DNA of 48,026 bases from a virus. Shown here piece by piece: positions 36,618 to 48,026 of this stretch (its first letter is position 1; each line of letters begins with the position of its first letter). Where the stretch lies: positions 1 through 48,026 of IMG/VR virus record IMGVR_UViG_3300037585_002041. One strand, 5' to 3'. Below the pieces are notes generated by a model. That model was not told where the DNA came from and searched no databases. It saw only the letters and a program-made list of their open reading frames with translations. A program made the translations under genes and the position numbers.

Positions 36618-39600
36618 ATGGCAAAAAAACAAAAGAAGCAGCAAGCAGCTAATAATAGCTTACCGCAGAATACTTCATCAACAGAGTCTAACTTGTTCAT
36701 GAAAGGTATGATTAAAGATACCTTTAGTTCAATATCATCAAAGGAAGTATGGGAGCATGCTGTTAATGCCATTAATAATTCCATTGATGGAGATACAGGA
36801 GTCATAGGAAATGAACCTGCAAATTTTGAATGTGCAGAGATACCATATACAATAATAGGTTCAATACATATATATGGAGATCATTGGGCTATATTCTCTA
36901 CAGATAATTTCTCTTCTGAAATAGGAACTTTTGATGATAGTAAATGTGAATACATAAGATTAGTAAATGATCCTTGTTTAAATTTTAATAAGGAACATTT
37001 AATTATAGGAGCATCTAAAGAAAATTTTGAATGTAAATACCAATTATATTGGGATGATGGTATAAATCCTTCTAGAACAATAATATTAGAAGATCCTCCA
37101 TATTTACAAGTAGAGACATCTGGGCCAACTATAGATGGTACTGCTTGTTCAATATATGTAAATGCAGAACCATTAACATTAGATTGTGAAAGAATTAGAC
37201 TAGCCCCATTAGTTGATACACCATGTCTTGATCTACAAAAAGCTCCAGAAGGAGGTCAACTTAGAAATGGTATGTATCAAGCATTTATAGCTTATACAAT
37301 AAATGATCAGGTGTATGGAGATTATATTGGTATATCTAATCAACAATCTTTATTTGAACATGAAGATAATGCAGGTTCATTAATATTAAGACTATCTAAT
37401 TTAGATAAAGAATTTGATCAATTCCAACTTGTAATACTTAGTAACAATCAAGAAGAAGTAGCTGCAAAAGTATTAGGTGAATATTATACAGAACAAACAG
37501 TAATCAAAATAGATTATATTGATCAGAAGTTAAAATCACTTCCTCTTGATTATCTTCCTTTACGAAGAAGTGCATATGAAAGATCTAAAGGTATGTTTGT
37601 TGTTAATGATTATTTAGTTAGAACACAACCAACAAATCAATTTGATTTTAACTATCAACCTTTTGCAAATCAAATACAAGCAAATTGGGCATCAATAGAA
37701 TATCCTGCTGACTACTATTATAACGGAGGAAATAAACCTACATTTTTGAGAGATGAGGTTTACTCATTCTTTATAAGATTTATATATAATACAGGAGAAC
37801 GTTCATCTTCATATCATATACCAGGAAGAATGCCACAGTTCTTTAATGCAGGTGGTGTAATGATAATGGAAAATAATGTAATACCTGGAGATCCTAATGC
37901 ATTAGATCCTACTGATCCTATATTTAAAGTATACAATACAGCTTGGGTATCATCACCAGCTATTAATACAACACAACCTGATGGTGGTATTTTAAGAAGT
38001 AGAGGTGCATTAGCCTATTGGGAATCTACAGAACTTTATCCACAGGATGTAACTAGATATGGTGCTAATTGTGGTATGCCAATTAGACATCATAAAATGC
38101 CTGATGAAAATACAGCTAACAATGGAACAACAGATAGAGCAACAGCAGCAGGGGATGGTATACATAATATTGCAATAGAGTTTACAAATATAGCGTGGCC
38201 TAGAGATAATGATAATAATCTTATAACTAATATAGTTGGTTATGAATTTTTAGTAGGATCACGGGAAGGACATAAATCAATCCTAGGAAAAGGTATCTTA
38301 AAGAATATGATGCAATATCAACCTACTACTCCAGGAGGAGCAGATGGTTCTTCACAATTTTTTATTCCAAATTATCCATATAATGATACAACACCTGATC
38401 CATATATAAAAGGACCTGGTGGAGGTGGAGGTGGAGCTGGAGGTTATAATAACTGGTCTGGTTCTGGATATACTGATTGGCTTTCTGGTTGTCCAGATGC
38501 AACTACAGGTATGTATAATATTTATTCAAATACTACATGTACATTTCATTCTCCAGATTTAATGTTTAATAGACCTTATTTAAATGCATGGGAATTAAAA
38601 TCATACGGTGTTTTGACAGGAACACAGACAGGTAGTTTTAAACCTTCTGAAAGACATCCAGGTGAAAAGTTGTTACGTAACTCTACAGCCGTTCTAGCAG
38701 CCTTTGTAGGTATAGGGTATGCTATATATCAAATGCGTGGTAAAACAAACACACAGATGACTACAGGACGTGTATTAGATATGGGTTATAGAGAACAAGG
38801 TTCTATTACTGCACATGGTGGAAATAGTGGTACTTTTGCTGGAGGTGGTGCAGGAGCTTGGTCACCTGTTGCTGGTGCATCATCAAATTATAATACTGGA
38901 ACTTGGACACCAAGAAGTGGGGGTGATGGTACATTTGATGCCTCAGCACCTAATCAAAATAGATGGCAATATGGTAATAGTATGGGTACTCCAACTGTGC
39001 CTATGTTTGGTGGTGGTACTGGTACTGGTGCACCTGGTACAGGAACTTATGATAATGCCTCTAATACCATGTTTCTTGGTTTTGGTGGTACTGCTGGTGG
39101 TACTCTTTCAAATAAAATGGGTTCTGATACATGGATAAATGCCCAGATCGGTCAATGGAATAATTCACCTGGATCAATAGGACCTGGTGTTACCCAAGTT
39201 CAAGAAGGATCAAGATTTAGTAATAAGCCTTTTTGGATGGGTATACTTAGTGGTGCTCAAGAATTTATGAGTTTTATAGCTGAAGGTGGTCAAGAGATAA
39301 TTGATTTAATTTATAATCTTACAAGTTGGAAACAATATGTATATAAATATAATAGTCATGGTTGGTATAGAATTACAAATCAATTACCACCAGGTACAGT
39401 ATTTAGACATCAAGTAAATACAGCAAGATATTTAAATGGAGCTATATCACAACTTACTCCTAATATTAGAATTAATAACTTAAATAGACCTACAACAGTA
39501 GCTGTAAATCTTAATGGTGCAGGATTACAAAATCCTTTTATGTTAGGGTTTGCTAATGATCAATCAAAGTTTACAATTGGAGGTGCACCAGGAACAGTAG

Positions 39601-42600
39601 ATTGGTATAATCCAGGAGGAGCAGCTACTACAGGAATTGCAGCACATTACTGTGCATTAAAATTTAATATAGATAATCAATACGGGCAATTAGAAGATAT
39701 AAAACAAATACCTATTAGAGGATGTATTGAACTTTTTGAAGATCAATTAGTTTTAGATGGAGCAGGTGATCCTATTATAAATGAATTAATAAGGTTTAAT
39801 TCTCAAATACTATTTGGAGGTGATTGCTTTATTAATAGATATACAGAAAAAGCTATTATGCCTTTCTTCTGGGACTATCTACATAAAAGAGAAAGAGATG
39901 GATTTGTTTGGGATTATAGATTATATCCTAATGTACCATATCCAAGATATTGGATGAATACAGAAAAATATAGACTTGATGAATTAACTAGACAATTAGG
40001 AGGTGTTGCCTTTATTGGTGCTGTTGCTGGTGGTTTTAATGGTGCTTTCCCTAATGATTATTATCATATGGATAGAGATCCAGCTTCTTGTGGAGGAGGG
40101 TTATGGAATGCAATAGCTGGTCTAGGTACACCAGGTTCATTATTTACTATACATGATGCATACATGTATTTACATTGTAATGGTGTTAATGATTTCTTTG
40201 TTGAATCTGAATTAAATTTAGCTCAGAGAGATCATGGAGATGACATGGAAAAAAGACATTATGATAGATTAACATTTACAGCAACAAATGATTTATTTGA
40301 TGTAGATATTTTAAAAGCAGGTAACTATTATAAGTATGATAAATCATTAAGTATAGATCAAAACTTATTCCAAACAGTAGGTTGGGGTGCTATACAAGAT
40401 AGAACTTATGATCCATTAGTAGCAGAAACATGTTATACAACATGGCATAAAAGACTTATATATTCATTACAAGCTAAGAAAGAAGCTAAGAAAGATTTTT
40501 GGAGAGTATTCCTTCCACTTAATTATAAAGAATTTAAAGATGCTGTAAACACTGTTAAACCAATTAATAAAACTGGTGCTTTAGTATTATTCCCTAAACT
40601 ATCACCACAAATATTCACAGGTAATGATGTACTTACAACTGATGCAGGAACTAAGGTTACAGTTGGTGATGGAGGTTTATTTGTAGATAGAAACTGGAAA
40701 GAATTAGTGAACTCTGATGTATCTCATGAATATGGATCATCTGAAAGTTCAAGAGGTGTATTAAATACACCAATGGGATTATTTTATATATCTCAAGAAC
40801 AAGGAAAAATATTTCAGACACAAGGAAGTCAATTAATTAATATTACTAATACAGGAATGAAGTGGTGGTTTAATAAATATTTACCATCTCAACTATTAGC
40901 AAATTTTCCTGAAATAGAACCTTGTCCATCAATGATAGATAATCCTGTAATATCTGCAGGATGTCAAACAGTATATGATACTAATAATGATATAGTATAT
41001 TTTTCAAAAAGAGATTGGTCTATGACAGATCAATACTCAAATAGTGAATGTATAGAGTATATTCCATGTGAAGGATTTTATGTGAATGAAACATTATGTA
41101 GTAGTGTAGCTCAGAATATAACATGTCCTGACGGATATAATTATAATGCAGTTACACAGATGTGTGAAAAGATTTGGACTGATGTTCCGTTTGGACCTCC
41201 CCCTCCAGCATGTGAACTTGATATTATGCTTGCTATAGATTGTTCAGGATCTGTTCCACAAAATACTAATGTTACAGCAATGCGAAATCTTGTACAAGGT
41301 ATAATTAATGTATTCTCACCTAGTATGGCATTAGGTAATACACAAATTGGTATTATGGGATGGGGTACTAGAGCTTTTGCAAGAGGTGAGTATAGTGCAG
41401 CAGCAATTGCCACTAATCCTTTATTAGGTCCTGTAGGATTAACTTATAATCCAGGATTATTAGATACTACAACAGGATGGATGAATGCATATACATGTGC
41501 TGTATATCCTACTACTTGTAATGTTACTTCAGGTACTGGATATGGAGATGCAATTTGGTCAGGTACAAATGAATTATTTAATCCTACTCCAGATACAGGA
41601 GGTGTAGGTACTAGAAATGGTGTACCTAAAAAGTTAGTAATATTAAATGATGGATGGGATGCTACTACTACTGGTACAGGTAATGTAGGATCTACTAATC
41701 CAACTGGTACTGATAGATCTGTTACACGTCCTATTTACACTAATACAGGTCAAACAGCTTCATTTGTTGCAATCCCTACAACACCACCTATGATACCAAC
41801 AGCACCTGATACTGGAGTTGTAGGTAGAATAAGTAATCCACAACCTGATAATTTAATTCAATGGATACAAACTTTTGTACATGCAAATCCACAATATCAA
41901 GATCCTATTGATCCAAATTTTATAGGACAATTTGAGATAATTCCAGGATGGTTAAAAAATAATAATACACCAACAACAGCAGAATTAAATTATGCACAGT
42001 CTGTTGCAGGAAATGATTATATTACAGGAGATCCAAATCCATTTATGGCTGGTGATTTTCAAGCTGCTAATATACCAGGAATTATAAATGATCTTGTAGA
42101 AAAGATATGTCCTGGTGTTTTACCAAACTGTGGACCTAATTGTACATATAATGCTGTAACAGAAGAATGTGACTGCATAGAAGAAGTAGATCCTATATTA
42201 GAAGATGTATTAACTTATATACCATTCCAATTAGAAAATCCAACATATTTCCAAGATGTTTCTTGGACAGTTAGTTATGATCCAAAAGCAAAAGCTTGGA
42301 TTTCATTTCATGATTGGCATCCTGAATTAACATTCAATAGTATCAATCATTTCATGACTTCTAAGACAACTACTACTGAGACACCACAATGTCCTCCAGG
42401 ATACTCATTTGTTAACGGAGAGTGTTGTCTTACAGTATCAGGTTCAGATCCTGCTAATGTATTTGTTGATTATCAACCTTCAAATGTTACTCTAGTAGAT
42501 GCTAATAGAACTGCATTTAGTCAACCTTTAGATATTGTATTTTCTATTGATTATTCAGGAAGTACAGCTGGAGGAAGTTTATATCAAACTCAAGGACAAT

Positions 42601-44168
42601 TTGTTGAGAGAATGATAGAATTATTATCACCAGGTATGCTTAATGATGTTTCTACTGCTCCTTGTCCATTAGGAGGTCAACCTGCAGGTACAGGAGTAAT
42701 TAATGTAGGTGTTAATGTATGGAGTTCTAATGGTATGACAAATTTAAATTCAGGTGCATTAACAGGTAATCCTTGTACTGCTATAAATTGGACAAATACT
42801 AATATGACTAGTGCTGCAGCTCCAAATCCAGCAAATTTAACAACATATGGTATTGCAGTTAATCAAAGTATAGCACAATTAGCTACTGGTTCTGCTGCTA
42901 GACAAATGGTAATATTTATTACTGATAGTGGGTGCAATAGTTGTACTACGGCTTGTCCAGGAGGTGCATTAAATACATTTAACGGTGGTCAATGGAGTCC
43001 TGCAAATATGACTGCTAATTTCTGGGGAGCTGGTATTGAATCAAAATCTGTATTCTCAAGTACGGGAGCACCTCCAGCAGGATGGCAAGTTAATTCTGCA
43101 TGTTTAGTAAATGATCCTAATGAACAATATGCTGTAACACCAGCTACTTTTGGTAATGTTGCTGTAACCATAATAGATTCATTAATAGGTTGTGATTGTG
43201 ATGGTCTTGGTGTACCAGACATTCCATTAAATTGGGCTCCTCTTGTACCATGTAGTCCAGTTGATAGTGATCCAATACCACAATGTGCATCATGTGAATG
43301 TCCTGATGGTTATACAGAAGTACCTGCAGCGCAACCATGTAATTCAATGACTCCACCAACATGTAAAAGAGTATGGTGTGAATGTCCTCCTATACCTGTA
43401 GTAGATCCAACTCAAGCGTTAACATGGTTAACAGGAAATTGTGATGATCTTATCTTATATGATACTCCTGGTTATATAAATACTGACCCTCAAATTTGTC
43501 ATTGGGAATATGAACAATGCGTACCTGCAAATTATGATGTAGGTGGTATATGGAAACATAATGTTAGAAATGACTTATTTACAAATTATTATGGTCAAGA
43601 TTATCCTTGGGAAATTTCACTAATAGAAAATTCAGGACAAGTAGTTAATACTTTAAGAAGTATAGAATATCAAATGGAGTCTTATGTATATAAGAACTTT
43701 AATTTACCACGTCCACAACAACTTATAGGTACAGATAGATGGCATGATTTAGATTGGAATTTTGATGAAGCAGTAATATATAATTCAGAACAAGTATCAG
43801 GATTACTTACACTTGATCTTACTCCTAAAAATAATATTGTATTATTGAACCAGTATCCTATAATCAATGCTACGGATATACAGATACTGTACTCTAAGGA
43901 AGAACAAAAATATAGATTCAATCAATTCTGGGATGTAACAGATGATAGAGGAGAATTTACAGGTATAGAAAGACCAATATGGGTAACATCATTAAATGGA
44001 TATATTAAACAATTGAATGCTGCTAATCTTAATTATGCAAAAGCTGCAATGCAACACAAGAAGTTTAGACACTATTATAATGTAGTAGTGTTAAGAAAGA
44101 ATGTATCAGGTGATAGAAAGATGTTATTAAAATTAAATAATAGTAAAATGAATGTATCTTTTAGATAA
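36618..44168 (+). CDS. Giant muzzle-like tail protein with two inserted vWA domains
   Basis: A 2516-aa protein. The N-terminus (FMKGMIKDTFSSISSKEVWE, about 27-46, then GDTGVIGNEPANF) and the later SWTVSYDPKAKAWISFHDWH (about 1885-1904) are typical of the crAss-like muzzle/tail-nozzle. Gly-rich segments lie at about 597-612 and 733-860. Two vWA-type domains with MIDAS motifs are inserted: DCSGS at 1541-1545 with LVILNDG near 1671, and DYSGS at 1978-1982 with MVIFITDSG near 2095. Each is bounded by CPxGY..C cysteine knots (about 1500, 1840, 1927, 2230). The C-terminal 250 residues return to muzzle-type sequence. It would form the tail exit and, by its insertions, contact host or environment. 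The stop overlaps the next start (TAATG). Confidence 0.8.
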   Translation: MAKKQKKQQAANNSLPQNTSSTESNLFMKGMIKDTFSSISSKEVWEHAVNAINNSIDGDTGVIGNEPANFECAEIPYTIIGSIHIYGDHWAIFSTDNFSSEIGTFDDSKCEYIRLVNDPCLNFNKEHLIIGASKENFECKYQLYWDDGINPSRTIILEDPPYLQVETSGPTIDGTACSIYVNAEPLTLDCERIRLAPLVDTPCLDLQKAPEGGQLRNGMYQAFIAYTINDQVYGDYIGISNQQSLFEHEDNAGSLILRLSNLDKEFDQFQLVILSNNQEEVAAKVLGEYYTEQTVIKIDYIDQKLKSLPLDYLPLRRSAYERSKGMFVVNDYLVRTQPTNQFDFNYQPFANQIQANWASIEYPADYYYNGGNKPTFLRDEVYSFFIRFIYNTGERSSSYHIPGRMPQFFNAGGVMIMENNVIPGDPNALDPTDPIFKVYNTAWVSSPAINTTQPDGGILRSRGALAYWESTELYPQDVTRYGANCGMPIRHHKMPDENTANNGTTDRATAAGDGIHNIAIEFTNIAWPRDNDNNLITNIVGYEFLVGSREGHKSILGKGILKNMMQYQPTTPGGADGSSQFFIPNYPYNDTTPDPYIKGPGGGGGGAGGYNNWSGSGYTDWLSGCPDATTGMYNIYSNTTCTFHSPDLMFNRPYLNAWELKSYGVLTGTQTGSFKPSERHPGEKLLRNSTAVLAAFVGIGYAIYQMRGKTNTQMTTGRVLDMGYREQGSITAHGGNSGTFAGGGAGAWSPVAGASSNYNTGTWTPRSGGDGTFDASAPNQNRWQYGNSMGTPTVPMFGGGTGTGAPGTGTYDNASNTMFLGFGGTAGGTLSNKMGSDTWINAQIGQWNNSPGSIGPGVTQVQEGSRFSNKPFWMGILSGAQEFMSFIAEGGQEIIDLIYNLTSWKQYVYKYNSHGWYRITNQLPPGTVFRHQVNTARYLNGAISQLTPNIRINNLNRPTTVAVNLNGAGLQNPFMLGFANDQSKFTIGGAPGTVDWYNPGGAATTGIAAHYCALKFNIDNQYGQLEDIKQIPIRGCIELFEDQLVLDGAGDPIINELIRFNSQILFGGDCFINRYTEKAIMPFFWDYLHKRERDGFVWDYRLYPNVPYPRYWMNTEKYRLDELTRQLGGVAFIGAVAGGFNGAFPNDYYHMDRDPASCGGGLWNAIAGLGTPGSLFTIHDAYMYLHCNGVNDFFVESELNLAQRDHGDDMEKRHYDRLTFTATNDLFDVDILKAGNYYKYDKSLSIDQNLFQTVGWGAIQDRTYDPLVAETCYTTWHKRLIYSLQAKKEAKKDFWRVFLPLNYKEFKDAVNTVKPINKTGALVLFPKLSPQIFTGNDVLTTDAGTKVTVGDGGLFVDRNWKELVNSDVSHEYGSSESSRGVLNTPMGLFYISQEQGKIFQTQGSQLINITNTGMKWWFNKYLPSQLLANFPEIEPCPSMIDNPVISAGCQTVYDTNNDIVYFSKRDWSMTDQYSNSECIEYIPCEGFYVNETLCSSVAQNITCPDGYNYNAVTQMCEKIWTDVPFGPPPPACELDIMLAIDCSGSVPQNTNVTAMRNLVQGIINVFSPSMALGNTQIGIMGWGTRAFARGEYSAAAIATNPLLGPVGLTYNPGLLDTTTGWMNAYTCAVYPTTCNVTSGTGYGDAIWSGTNELFNPTPDTGGVGTRNGVPKKLVILNDGWDATTTGTGNVGSTNPTGTDRSVTRPIYTNTGQTASFVAIPTTPPMIPTAPDTGVVGRISNPQPDNLIQWIQTFVHANPQYQDPIDPNFIGQFEIIPGWLKNNNTPTTAELNYAQSVAGNDYITGDPNPFMAGDFQAANIPGIINDLVEKICPGVLPNCGPNCTYNAVTEECDCIEEVDPILEDVLTYIPFQLENPTYFQDVSWTVSYDPKAKAWISFHDWHPELTFNSINHFMTSKTTTTETPQCPPGYSFVNGECCLTVSGSDPANVFVDYQPSNVTLVDANRTAFSQPLDIVFSIDYSGSTAGGSLYQTQGQFVERMIELLSPGMLNDVSTAPCPLGGQPAGTGVINVGVNVWSSNGMTNLNSGALTGNPCTAINWTNTNMTSAAAPNPANLTTYGIAVNQSIAQLATGSAARQMVIFITDSGCNSCTTACPGGALNTFNGGQWSPANMTANFWGAGIESKSVFSSTGAPPAGWQVNSACLVNDPNEQYAVTPATFGNVAVTIIDSLIGCDCDGLGVPDIPLNWAPLVPCSPVDSDPIPQCASCECPDGYTEVPAAQPCNSMTPPTCKRVWCECPPIPVVDPTQALTWLTGNCDDLILYDTPGYINTDPQICHWEYEQCVPANYDVGGIWKHNVRNDLFTNYYGQDYPWEISLIENSGQVVNTLRSIEYQMESYVYKNFNLPRPQQLIGTDRWHDLDWNFDEAVIYNSEQVSGLLTLDLTPKNNIVLLNQYPIINATDIQILYSKEEQKYRFNQFWDVTDDRGEFTGIERPIWVTSLNGYIKQLNAANLNYAKAAMQHKKFRHYYNVVVLRKNVSGDRKMLLKLNNSKMNVSFR

Positions 44169-47100
44169 TGAAATTAAGTAGAGACGGATATAAGAGAAAT
44201 AGTAAGGATGTAAACAATCCTTACAATGTAATACCATCAGGTGATATAACTATGAAAGGTGTTGATTTTCCTGTAATGGGAACAGATAATCTTGGTAATC
44301 AACAAGTTATGCAACCTGGTTTTGATTATAAATTTCCTGGTAATATGGTATTTGAACAACCTGTTCAAGATAAACCAAAGAATCAAGTAAAGCAAAGAAG
44401 AGTAGATAGAGATAATAAATTAATGCCAAACTGGACAAAAGAAATGGGGGATGTATCATCACACCTTATGACTACTATGCAATTTACAGATGATGATGGA
44501 AGTCCTATATATATTGCTATACCAACTTTATTTCCTACAACTGAAGGGCAAGAAACACCTGATCCAGCATCATGGACTCAGTTTGCAAAAGGAGATGAGA
44601 TGAGTGCTTTTGAGATGGCTATGGAAAGAGGTGAAGTATATTATTTTAGTTCTGCAGAAGAAGCCAATGCATTTGCTAAAGGAGGTTATAAAACTCCAAA
44701 CTTAAAAAAGAGAGATGGTGGATCATTACCAAAGGCTCAATTGCAACTTATTGATGATGCATACCAATGGGGAAAGAGTTTATTTTCTAAACCAACAATT
44801 GGTTTACAATATCCAACAGGAGGGTTAACTCATAAGTTTACAAATGCTCCAAAATTCCCTATAGAAGGACGAGCTTCAGATCATTTTGGATTGTTAAAGA
44901 ATTTTGATTATACTTCTTTTCCAGATTGGCAGAGATATATAGCTGCATCTCAACCTCTTAGTTCAAGTTATCAATTTCCAACACTTGTTAATGATGCTGC
45001 TTTTAATAATCTGGTTAATAACAAAAATTTAATTAATGTTAATTTATTAAGCCAATATCTAGATAAAACTAAAGGTTTAAATTCAACGCAGTTATATGAT
45101 AGACAAAGAATAAAAAGTGCATTTAATGATTTAAATTTACAACAAAAATATGTAGATAAAGATTTATTTCTTGAAGAAGTTAATAAAACATTAAATCCAC
45201 AATTAACGATTCCAAGTCTTACATCATTACCAATGAAAACTGGTACAGACTATGCAGACTATTGGATGGGTAAAGGTAATCCACATAAAACTTTTTCATT
45301 CATGGCTAACAGGGAGGAGTTTACTCCAACTAATTGGGATAACATGAGTGCAGAATCTCAAAAAAAATGGATAGAAGAGAATTATCCTGATTTATCATCT
45401 ACTATAGTTAAGCCTAATACAGATCCTCATGTTTTACAAACATTTATACCTAATAGTCCAGGAGTACCAATGTGGGATAGGAGTGTAGGTTCTTCTCATT
45501 TTAACCCAATGGTAAATGATTCCTATGAAGGTGGTTTAACATTAGGTCATAATAGAATATCATTTGATCCTGCGTTTCCTAAGACAACAGTATCCTTGGA
45601 GAGACAGTCAGATTATGCCCAAAGATATAATGTAAAAAGTAGAAGTGGTAGTGGACTAGGAGCTTTTGATGAATATATGAATACATTAAAAGATACAAAA
45701 CCTCTCCAAACAGAGCTAGCCATAGAAAGGTCAAAAACTAATTTGGATAATACTACAAAATTTATTGAAGAAATAGATAAAGGTGATGATGCTATTAGAA
45801 AATTATTACACTCAGAAGCTCAAGTAGAACATTGGACAGGTAGAACTTTTCATGAAGCAGTCAAAAACTTTTATAATGGTAGGGATTTTAGACCTAGATT
45901 TACAGCAAGAGGTCCAGATATGCAAAGTATTGATATGAATAAAAGTAATTATAAAATTAATAATAACGATGTATCTTTTGATGCAACATATTTAAATTTT
46001 AATGATCTCACACATGATCAAATAATAGAGATAGTTAATTTACCTCAATTTAGAAATTACATAAAAGAAAATAAGAAATATTTTAAATCAGAATATGATG
46101 AAAATATTATTAAACATAAAGAGCAAGTTGCAAAAAATGAAAAAGAAATATATGATATTGAAAATTGGAGCCCACTTAAAACAAATTTAGAGAGATATAA
46201 AAAAAATGCTCCTACAATATTATTAAATGAGTTAATAGACTATAGTACAAAAATAGGTAATACACACGTACACCTCCCATTATCATCAACAGTTGCAAAA
46301 ACTCAAGGGTATGATGCAAATAAATGGGGAGCACCTAATCCTTTATTTCATCAGTTTAAATGGACAGGTCATGATTGGAATAGTTTTAATAATGATATTA
46401 ATGACCTAAGAAAAATAATGAAGTTAGATTTAACTGAAGGTAATACTAAATCTATAGGACCTTTTAGTTTTAAAGTAATAAAGGGTGAACCATTATTGTC
46501 AACTCCATCCCAAAATCATCCTAATGAGATAATTACTATTTATAAAAATCCTGAGACTGGTGAAGTAACTGAATTTCTTGGAACGGCTCAAGAACAAATG
46601 AAACAAATGGAAACTATTAGAAATGAGTTCTTAACATCTAAAGGGTATAATCCAGAAGTAGATTATAAAAATGTAGAAGGAGCATATAAACCAGAACATC
46701 AAACTATATTAAATAAATCTTCTGAAACACAACTTAAAAAAGATATTGAACAAATTTTTGGAAAGGGTTATCCATATGAAATTATTACAGATGGCCGTGG
46801 TAATCAATATATTAGATTAGATCATACGGGTACCAGGCTTCCAATTAAGAATATTCATGAATATAAAAGTGGTGGGGAATCTCTACCTAAAGCACAATGG
46901 TGGAATCCTAAAAATGCTTATAATGCATTTAAAACTATGAAGAATTCTTTCTCTCCAGGAATTAAACCTATGAATGTTAGAAAAGTTGGAGATTTTGGAA
47001 AACCACGTTCACAATATATTTTCCAAGCTCCACATGGAGATCGTGTACAATCATTGAAGAATTATTATAATCCAGATTTTACAAAGTTTTCTGAACTTAG

Positions 47101-48026
47101 AACACATCCAAATGTAGGAGATTATACGTATGACAAAATGATTGATGAATTTACTTGGCTTAATGATGCTGCTAAAGTATCTGATAGAGTTATTAAACCA
47201 TATAATCCTATATATGATGAAAGTGGAGATCTTATATCTTATGATATGCCTAATCTTAGAGACTATGTATCTGCAGGATATGTAGTAAATAATAAAACTA
47301 TTTTTGAATTAGATCCAATATTTGGAGAAGATCTTACTTCTGAAATTAGTAAACTTAATGCTAGTGGATTTATTCATGGTGATCTTCATTCTGGTAATAT
47401 CATGGTTAAACTAAATGCATCTAAAAATAAAGTTTTAGATTTTAAAATAATTGATCCATCAGGCTTCCCACAATTAACATCAGATATTAATTATAAGACA
47501 GCACCATTTTTACAGTCTAGACAAAAATCATGGAATATAGATAAAACTGATAATCCTTTATTTCAAAGAATGAATGTATTAAATAAAGCATCAGATATAG
47601 ATAAAAAGAAATTAATAGAGTTAGAAAATAAAAAACCAATTGAGTTTGCTGATTATCAACAAGGAGGTTCATTACCAAAGGCACAGGATGGAAAAGAAGT
47701 TAAAGATTACTTTACAGCTTACTTAAATAGTGATTTATTTAAACGTAGAGCAATAGATTTACATGGTGAAGAAAATTGGGAAAAAGTAAGAGATGGTAAA
47801 CTAAAAAGATTAGGAGATACAGAAGTTGATTTTAGTGGAGAAGAAGAGTGGGCAGATATATATGCTACGGATTATAGTCAATCCAATCTACTGGCTGTGA
47901 TAGGTTTAAAGGAGAAGTTTGATAGACTACAATCTAGATATATGAGACCTGGTTATGATGGTAATACAAATCCTATAGTTAAAGTAAACCCAGGACAAGC
48001 TGTAACAATGGCAGAAGATCATGAAT
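44168..48026 (+). CDS. Giant virion/cargo protein candidate with kinase-like domain (partial, 3' end beyond window)
   Basis: At least 1286 codons without a stop from ATG at 44168, which overlaps the muzzle stop (TAATG). Parts: a region at about 113-178 with PTLFPT and FSSAEEANAFAKGG, resembling a module of phage internal virion proteins; GGSLPKAQ at 184-191; a large helical/mixed region; GGESLPKAQ at 902-910; a protein-kinase/APH-like C-lobe with HGDLHSGN (1070-1077) and DPSG (1096-1099); GGSLPKAQ at 1166-1173; then an acidic region to the window edge. It looks like an ejected or internal protein of the tail/head, comparable in place to crAss-like cargo proteins. Kinase activity is inference: HGDLHxGN plus a D-P-S-G metal motif are visible, but an N-lobe lysine is not clearly assigned. 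Confidence 0.75.
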   Translation, partial: MKLSRDGYKRNSKDVNNPYNVIPSGDITMKGVDFPVMGTDNLGNQQVMQPGFDYKFPGNMVFEQPVQDKPKNQVKQRRVDRDNKLMPNWTKEMGDVSSHLMTTMQFTDDDGSPIYIAIPTLFPTTEGQETPDPASWTQFAKGDEMSAFEMAMERGEVYYFSSAEEANAFAKGGYKTPNLKKRDGGSLPKAQLQLIDDAYQWGKSLFSKPTIGLQYPTGGLTHKFTNAPKFPIEGRASDHFGLLKNFDYTSFPDWQRYIAASQPLSSSYQFPTLVNDAAFNNLVNNKNLINVNLLSQYLDKTKGLNSTQLYDRQRIKSAFNDLNLQQKYVDKDLFLEEVNKTLNPQLTIPSLTSLPMKTGTDYADYWMGKGNPHKTFSFMANREEFTPTNWDNMSAESQKKWIEENYPDLSSTIVKPNTDPHVLQTFIPNSPGVPMWDRSVGSSHFNPMVNDSYEGGLTLGHNRISFDPAFPKTTVSLERQSDYAQRYNVKSRSGSGLGAFDEYMNTLKDTKPLQTELAIERSKTNLDNTTKFIEEIDKGDDAIRKLLHSEAQVEHWTGRTFHEAVKNFYNGRDFRPRFTARGPDMQSIDMNKSNYKINNNDVSFDATYLNFNDLTHDQIIEIVNLPQFRNYIKENKKYFKSEYDENIIKHKEQVAKNEKEIYDIENWSPLKTNLERYKKNAPTILLNELIDYSTKIGNTHVHLPLSSTVAKTQGYDANKWGAPNPLFHQFKWTGHDWNSFNNDINDLRKIMKLDLTEGNTKSIGPFSFKVIKGEPLLSTPSQNHPNEIITIYKNPETGEVTEFLGTAQEQMKQMETIRNEFLTSKGYNPEVDYKNVEGAYKPEHQTILNKSSETQLKKDIEQIFGKGYPYEIITDGRGNQYIRLDHTGTRLPIKNIHEYKSGGESLPKAQWWNPKNAYNAFKTMKNSFSPGIKPMNVRKVGDFGKPRSQYIFQAPHGDRVQSLKNYYNPDFTKFSELRTHPNVGDYTYDKMIDEFTWLNDAAKVSDRVIKPYNPIYDESGDLISYDMPNLRDYVSAGYVVNNKTIFELDPIFGEDLTSEISKLNASGFIHGDLHSGNIMVKLNASKNKVLDFKIIDPSGFPQLTSDINYKTAPFLQSRQKSWNIDKTDNPLFQRMNVLNKASDIDKKKLIELENKKPIEFADYQQGGSLPKAQDGKEVKDYFTAYLNSDLFKRRAIDLHGEENWEKVRDGKLKRLGDTEVDFSGEEEWADIYATDYSQSNLLAVIGLKEKFDRLQSRYMRPGYDGNTNPIVKVNPGQAVTMAEDHE
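44717..44740 (+). repeat. GGSLPKAQ boundary motif, copy 1 (coding)
   Basis: Encodes residues 184-191 of the giant open frame. The same octapeptide (or with one inserted Glu) recurs at 46871-46897 and 47663-47686, each time at a change of sequence character. Confidence 0.75.
46871..46897 (+). repeat. GGESLPKAQ boundary motif, copy 2 (coding)
   Basis: Encodes residues 902-910, just before the kinase-like region of the giant frame. It carries one extra Glu compared with copies 1 and 3. Confidence 0.75.
47663..47686 (+). repeat. GGSLPKAQ boundary motif, copy 3 (coding)
   Basis: Encodes residues 1166-1173, after the kinase-like region. The protein sequence is identical to copy 1 although codon choice differs (GGA-GGT and CAG here), so the peptide rather than the DNA is what is conserved. 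Confidence 0.75.

What the first reader, a model, noticed from the sequence alone, without database searches (positions are those of the whole stretch)
47090..47475. Protein-kinase/APH-like catalytic loop inside a giant phage virion protein
Seen: residues 1070-1077 read HGDLHSGN and residues 1096-1099 read DPSG, 19 residues apart. In the aminoglycoside-phosphotransferase / choline-kinase / RIO-type clade of the kinase fold, HGDxHxxN is the catalytic loop and D-[FP]-x-[GD] the metal site. Upstream there is a helix with Glu (KMIDEFTWLNDAAKVSDRVI) and a hinge-like DMPNLRDYV. Known: such kinases phosphorylate small molecules or proteins. Inference: the phage may carry and eject an enzyme that modifies host targets at entry. 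I know of no established description in crAss-like virion proteins.
Basis: partly seen in the sequence, partly recalled or inferred. Interest (0 to 1): 0.82.

Follow-up and report, generated by a model that had tools for sequence, protein, structure and literature searches.

The report
Swappable kinase module in phage cargo protein
A relative of crAssphage carries, inside a long protein that is probably packed in the particle and pushed into the bacterium at infection, a small kinase-like enzyme flanked by repeated 'GGSLPKAQ' tags; the same enzyme sits in a different tagged protein of a related virus, so it looks like an exchangeable injected enzyme cassette.

Summary
In detail: HGDLHSGN (aa 1070-1077) and DPSG (aa 1096-1099) lie in an ORF of at least 1286 aa (44168-48025+, cut by the contig end); no shuffle of the window's ORFs gave the pattern. 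It belongs to a kinase-like domain: a homologue at 46% identity in a related virus (G051) keeps HGDLHSGN, the DPxG Asp and the helix-C Glu; the 60 best PDB hits of a two-sequence profile are all kinases; a moderate-confidence model matches kinases best (PRPK/Bud32, TTK, RIO2). The C-lobe after DPxG is truncated and the ATP-anchoring Lys unresolved, so activity is inferred.
The context changes the picture. The domain lies exactly between two GG(E)SLPKAQ tags, in a protein encoded directly behind the muzzle-like tail protein, the place of crAss001 cargo C1. A related virus has the same N-terminus (78% identical) but other tagged modules; in G051 the kinase module sits in another tagged array gene at another locus. 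Best reading: an exchangeable kinase effector in a virion cargo array, a new variant of the 'polyvalent proteins' of Iyer et al. 2017. The published polyvalent kinase family (PF18762) does not match. Packaging, cleavage and substrate are unproven.

The parts
44168..48025 (+). Cargo-array ORF P0001, at least 1286 aa, open at the contig end
   Evidence: starts inside the stop codon of the muzzle-like gene 36618-44168
44168..44722 (+). Conserved N-terminal tag (GYKRNSKDVNNPYNVIPSGDITMKGVDFPVMG...MQPGFDYKFPGNMVFEQP), shared by other giant ORFs
   Evidence: 78% identical in L002; the same tag occurs in several other tag-bearing giant ORFs; N-terminal 35 aa match Cellulophaga phage phi4:1 gp040, annotated from MS/MS as a virion protein
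44717..44740 (+). Delimiter 1, GGSLPKAQ (aa 184-191)
44741..46870 (+). Module 1 (aa 192-901), no known family; its last ~80 aa resemble the end of a module in L002
46871..46897 (+). Delimiter 2, GGESLPKAQ (aa 902-910), followed by a basic amphipathic stretch WWNPKNAYNAFKTMKNSF
46940..47662 (+). Kinase-like module (aa 925-1165)
   Evidence: 46% identical homologue in G051; Pfam, PDB and Foldseek kinase matches
47147..47149 (+). Helix-C Glu994, conserved in the homologue and aligned with the helix-C region of TTK
47243..47269 (+). Beta-5/hinge DMPNLRDYV (aa 1026-1034)
   Evidence: strand 98-102 of the model
47375..47398 (+). Catalytic loop HGDLHSGN (aa 1070-1077)
47453..47464 (+). Metal site DPSG (aa 1096-1099), DPAG in the homologue
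47663..47686 (+). Delimiter 3, GGSLPKAQ (aa 1166-1173), ends the kinase module
36618..44168 (+). Upstream muzzle-like giant tail protein (2516 aa); gene order as crAss001 muzzle then cargo C1
   Evidence: 72% identical, same order in G001; C-terminus weakly matches structural proteins of Cellulophaga, Flavobacterium and epsilon crAss-like phages; 'muzzle' is inferred from position and this match, no PDB hit

Best explanation
Residues ~925-1165 form a minimal kinase-superfamily phosphotransferase that is one exchangeable module of a virion cargo polyprotein in a crAss-like phage. Most likely course: the array protein is made late and packed in the particle (capsid or tail lumen, like crAss001 gp45) with the help of its conserved N-terminal tag [inferred]; it is extruded into the host ahead of the DNA [inferred]; the GGxLPKAQ tags with their basic amphipathic stretch serve as packaging and/or cleavage elements that free the modules [inferred]; the kinase module then binds ATP-Mg and phosphorylates a host protein early in infection, working like T7 kinase in chemistry and like the ejected ART T4 Alt in timing [inferred]. 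Shown here: kinase-type catalytic motifs conserved in two divergent homologues, kinase profile and fold matches, exact placement between tags, and presence of the same module in two different array genes of related phages.
For: Homologue with 46% identity, all catalytic residues kept. Profile of the two sequences: the 60 best PDB hits shown are all kinases, best E 1e-4; the TTK alignment (E 2e-4) runs from helix C to the DFG region. APH PF01636: E 9.5e-6 in the window genome, 1.4e-6 in G051 where it just reaches the cut-off. Model with strand-strand-helix C-beta4-beta5-helix E-catalytic loop order; the top Foldseek hits in both libraries are kinases (PRPK, TTK, RIO2; viral kinases), probability up to 1.00, none with E below 1e-3. 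Tag-to-tag placement; polymorphic arrays behind a 78% identical N-terminus; kinase module in a different gene in G051, at a locus where window and G001 have no array. Cargo position behind the muzzle (PMC10172136). phi4:1 gp040, sharing the N-terminal tag, is annotated as a virion protein from MS/MS. Tags followed by basic amphipathic 28-mers (mean charge +3.2 versus -0.1, p 5e-5).
Against: No recognisable Gly-rich loop and no certain beta-3 Lys (Lys939 and Lys973 are both invariant but of unclear role). About 70 residues follow DPSG, so no full C-lobe. Model confidence is moderate (pLDDT 54, pTM 0.46) and its alignment contained 13 kinases picked by the motif; the single-sequence model failed (pLDDT 33). 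Only two close members known. Virion presence rests on gene order and a weak (E 0.02) match of 35 residues to a proteomics-confirmed protein. Cleavage at the tags is untested. No substrate evidence.
Confidence: 0.6

Rival explanations
1. Active phosphotransferase, but on a small molecule (nucleotide, sugar, lipid or antibiotic), as in APH/choline kinase, rather than on host protein.
For: Best Pfam matches are APH and APH_6_hur; DPxG rather than DFG; HGDLHxGN is typical of APH-type kinases.
Against: APH enzymes use a large helical C-lobe for substrate (own knowledge); this module has only ~70 residues after DPSG. Two-sequence profile and Foldseek hits are mostly protein kinases and PRPK/RIO.
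Confidence: 0.2
2. Pseudokinase: a kinase fold kept as a binding or structural module, without catalysis.
For: No certain beta-3 Lys or Gly-rich loop; degenerate N-lobe.
Against: All catalytic-loop and metal residues (H, D, N, D) are invariant at 46% identity, which pseudokinases usually lose.
Confidence: 0.13
3. Not a kinase: chance HGDxHxxN motif in a structural protein.
For: Single-protein Pfam scores are below cut-off; single-sequence model failed.
Against: No hit in 300 shuffles, conserved homologue, kinases only among the PDB profile hits shown and kinase folds at the top of the fold searches.
Confidence: 0.05

Closest known systems
Polyvalent proteins of phages and conjugative elements (Iyer et al. 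2017, PMC5512222)
   Same: Very long multidomain proteins by late virion genes; varied effector domains incl. kinases, ARTs, metallopeptidases; kinases with lost C-terminal subdomain, also in Bacteroidetes (pro)phages; proposed packaging and injection.
   Different: Main text does not mention crAss or Cellulophaga phages or tag-delimited modules; its kinase family (PF18762) does not match here, and HGD has no insert between His and Asp.
crAss001 cargo protein C1, gp45 (PMC10172136)
   Same: Encoded directly behind the muzzle gene; virion cargo in capsid and tail.
   Different: No homology shown; gp45 is thought to help form the ejection channel; no kinase or tagged modules in the passages read.
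Cellulophaga phage phi4:1 gp040 / phi17:2 gp041
   Same: N-terminal tag; gene near the muzzle homologue; phi4:1 gp040 annotated as virion protein from MS/MS.
   Different: 895 aa, no kinase motif, no clear GGSLPKAQ array; similarity limited to ~35 aa.
APH family PF01636, PRPK/Bud32 and RIO kinases
   Same: HGDxHxxN-type loop and metal-site Asp; HMM and Foldseek matches.
   Different: Shorter after DPSG; window copy scores below the Pfam cut-off; little similarity outside the loop.
T4 Alt and T7 protein kinase (PMC5512222 and own knowledge)
   Same: Phage enzymes that modify host proteins early; Alt is packaged and ejected, T7 kinase phosphorylates.
   Different: Alt is an ART; T7 kinase is expressed after entry and not packaged; no homology shown.

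Membership tests
Protein kinase/APH superfamily (kinase fold) | Catalytic loop HxD..N and metal Asp (DFG/DPxG) | tested here: met
   HGDLHSGN and DPSG, conserved in homologue
Protein kinase/APH superfamily (kinase fold) | Helix-C Glu | tested here: met
   Glu994 invariant and aligned in the TTK helix-C region
Protein kinase/APH superfamily (kinase fold) | Beta-3 Lys and Gly-rich loop | tested here: inconclusive
   Invariant Lys candidates but no confident strand; no Gly-rich loop seen
Protein kinase/APH superfamily (kinase fold) | Two-lobe fold incl. C-lobe | tested here: inconclusive
   Kinase-like order up to the metal site; C-lobe after DPxG truncated, pLDDT 54; top fold hits are kinases
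APH family PF01636 | Score over curated cut-off | tested here: not met
   Window 20.4 bits versus 23.2; homologue just reaches 23.2
Kinase-PolyVal PF18762 (Iyer et al. 2017) | Profile match; insert between His and Asp | tested here: not met
   No match at E 10 in G000, G001, G051; His-Gly-Asp without insert
Polyvalent proteins (class) | Multidomain protein with varied effector domains by virion genes | tested here: met
   Tagged arrays with kinase and ART-like modules by late genes; the ART assignments are weak
Polyvalent proteins (class) | Packaged and injected | not testable with these tools
   Only gene order and a distant proteomics-confirmed relative
Crassvirales cargo C1 (gp45) | Homology to gp45 | tested here: inconclusive
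   Positional correspondence only; tblastn of the whole ORF against phage records found nothing; gp45 itself was not aligned profile to profile

The most novel reading that the evidence does not exclude
These crAss-like phages run a combinatorial effector-delivery system: virion cargo polyproteins built of interchangeable enzyme cassettes (kinase, ART-like, peptidase-like), each preceded by a GGxLPKAQ tag plus a basic amphipathic helix that acts as packaging or cleavage signal, with cassettes moving between array genes.
Probability: 0.4. Interest if true: 0.78.

Novelty: new variant of a known kind. Interest (0 to 1): 0.62.

Why it matters
crAss-like phages are very abundant and carry large, mostly unexplained virion cargo. 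A kinase cassette with clear, movable boundaries suggests what part of that cargo may do (modify host proteins before any phage gene is expressed) and gives a simple tag by which further cargo enzymes can be found and tested.

Tried and rejected
Single-sequence structure prediction failed. Searches for closer kinase relatives in bacterial genomes, phage records, 50 contigs picked by portal similarity and 49 tag-bearing contigs with G051 as control gave no member beyond G051. FKIIDP[SA]G scan: only G051 plus two unrelated proteins. Kinase-PolyVal membership rejected; strict APH membership not claimed. A profile of all HGDLHxGNI kinases gives very strong PDB hits, but these are driven by the other kinases in it and are not used as evidence. 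The hhalign match of 97.8% covers only the loop by which those sequences were picked, so it carries little weight. ART or peptidase roles of the other modules: no Pfam match on most modules, so kept as weak.

Full report
Observation. The ORF 44168-48025 (+) encodes at least 1286 aa and runs off the contig (the record is exactly the window). HGDLHSGN stands at aa 1070-1077 and DPSG at 1096-1099. A general pattern for this pair occurs once in the window's six-frame ORFs and never in 300 shuffles.

Is it a kinase? Single-sequence searches are suggestive only: Pfam hits fall on the catalytic loop, led by APH PF01636 (E 4.7e-4, below cut-off), and PDB phmmer hits are weak kinases. A scan of IMG/VR for HGDLHxGNI brought a true homologue (L163, genome G051; 157 bits, E 2.5e-46). 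The two share 46% identity over ~240 aa, far outside the motif, with invariant H, D, N, DPxG Asp and Glu994. The two-sequence profile finds kinases (STK33, TTK, RIO2, BUB1, JNK) in the PDB, and the TTK alignment runs in register from helix C to the DFG region. PF01636 just reaches its cut-off in the homologue, over the hinge-to-DPxG stretch. AlphaFold with 15 sequences gives a moderate model (pLDDT 54; about 60-83 from helix C to the loop) with kinase element order; the top Foldseek hits are kinases in the PDB and in the viral library, none with E below 1e-3. Caveat: 13 of the 15 sequences were kinases picked by the motif, so the model leans towards a kinase. Not settled: the beta-3 Lys, the Gly-rich loop, and activity. 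Only ~70 residues follow DPSG, so the usual C-lobe is truncated.

Where does it sit? The phage is crAss-like: TerL, portal, MCP and tail genes match head and tail PHROG families, and the TerL matches listed are mostly crAss-type phages at ~25% identity. The array gene overlaps the stop of a 2516-aa muzzle-like gene. In crAss001 the muzzle is followed by cargo C1 gp45, found in capsid and tail (PMC10172136). The N-terminal tag recurs in other giant ORFs and in Cellulophaga phage phi4:1 gp040, annotated as a virion protein from MS/MS, though that match is short (E 0.02).

Modules. P0001 has tags GGSLPKAQ, GGESLPKAQ and GGSLPKAQ at aa 184, 902 and 1166, and none occur elsewhere in the window. The kinase fills 902-1166. 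In G001 (portal 88% identical) the N-terminal 185 aa are 78% identical, but the rest is a different set of modules, each behind a tag. In G051 (portal 75%) a 2658-aa array with tags GGELPKAQ holds the kinase module, an ART-like module (DUF3990 E 0.004; ART-PolyVal E 0.001; both below cut-off) and two HExxH-like motifs (read). That gene lies at the strand switch ahead of the terminase block, where window and G001 have no such gene. G051's own post-muzzle gene is not on its contig. So the same module occurs in two different genes of related phages, which is best explained by movement of the cassette. Tags are followed by basic amphipathic stretches (mean charge +3.2 versus -0.1, p 5e-5; helical moment p 5e-4); these are 13 tags in three related proteins, so not fully independent, and the last tag in two of the three proteins lacks this feature.

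Known or new. Iyer et al. 2017 (PMC5512222) described polyvalent proteins, multidomain phage and plasmid proteins with kinases, ARTs and peptidases thought to be transferred with the DNA, and noted kinases lacking the C-terminal subdomain in Bacteroidetes (pro)phages. The class is therefore known. New here are the crAss-like virion setting, the tag-delimited layout, and a kinase that does not match the published polyvalent kinase profile. The literature searches run found no paper on it, within an open-access library only.

Mechanism. Packaged, ejected and released as a free kinase that phosphorylates host protein is the reading I judge most likely (0.6 as stated; kinase fold ~0.9; virion cargo ~0.75; protein rather than small-molecule substrate ~0.65; these are judgements, not computed). 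Shown: motifs, homologue, placement, the module in two genes. Inferred: packaging, ejection, cleavage, activity, substrate.

Noticed in passing
window 36618-44165 (aa 1535-1580): The muzzle-like tail protein carries a von Willebrand factor A-like stretch (PF00092 E 0.0015, below cut-off); the G001 homologue reads DIALVMDVSGSTA.
   Followed up: no
L009-L075 (about 60 viral contigs): GGSLPKAQ-type tags occur in many giant viral ORFs, often two or three per protein; function unknown, candidate packaging or cleavage signal.
   Followed up: partly
L194:3289-11265: The G051 array has HExxH-like motifs EHELRH and THEYGH that may be metallopeptidase modules, perhaps able to process the array.
   Followed up: no
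L081:1-14052 (reverse strand): A 4684-aa viral ORF holds two kinase-like catalytic loops (HTDMQNQN and HGDFHSGN), possibly another polyvalent protein.
   Followed up: no
L079:3107-6565, L106, L145: Viral ORFs of about 1150-1220 aa end in a kinase-like domain (VSHGDLHPGNIM...IIDFG).
   Followed up: no
L002:10012-10695: Last module of the G001 array (after tag GGSVKAQ) looks lysozyme/transglycosylase-like by eye (YAESLNG...ATGLYG); no Pfam match.
   Followed up: no
L059 (IMGVR_UViG_3300031578_000105): Close relative (portal 88%) has the same N-terminal tag, followed at the first GGSLPKAQ by a different sequence than in the window, another sign of polymorphism.
   Followed up: partly
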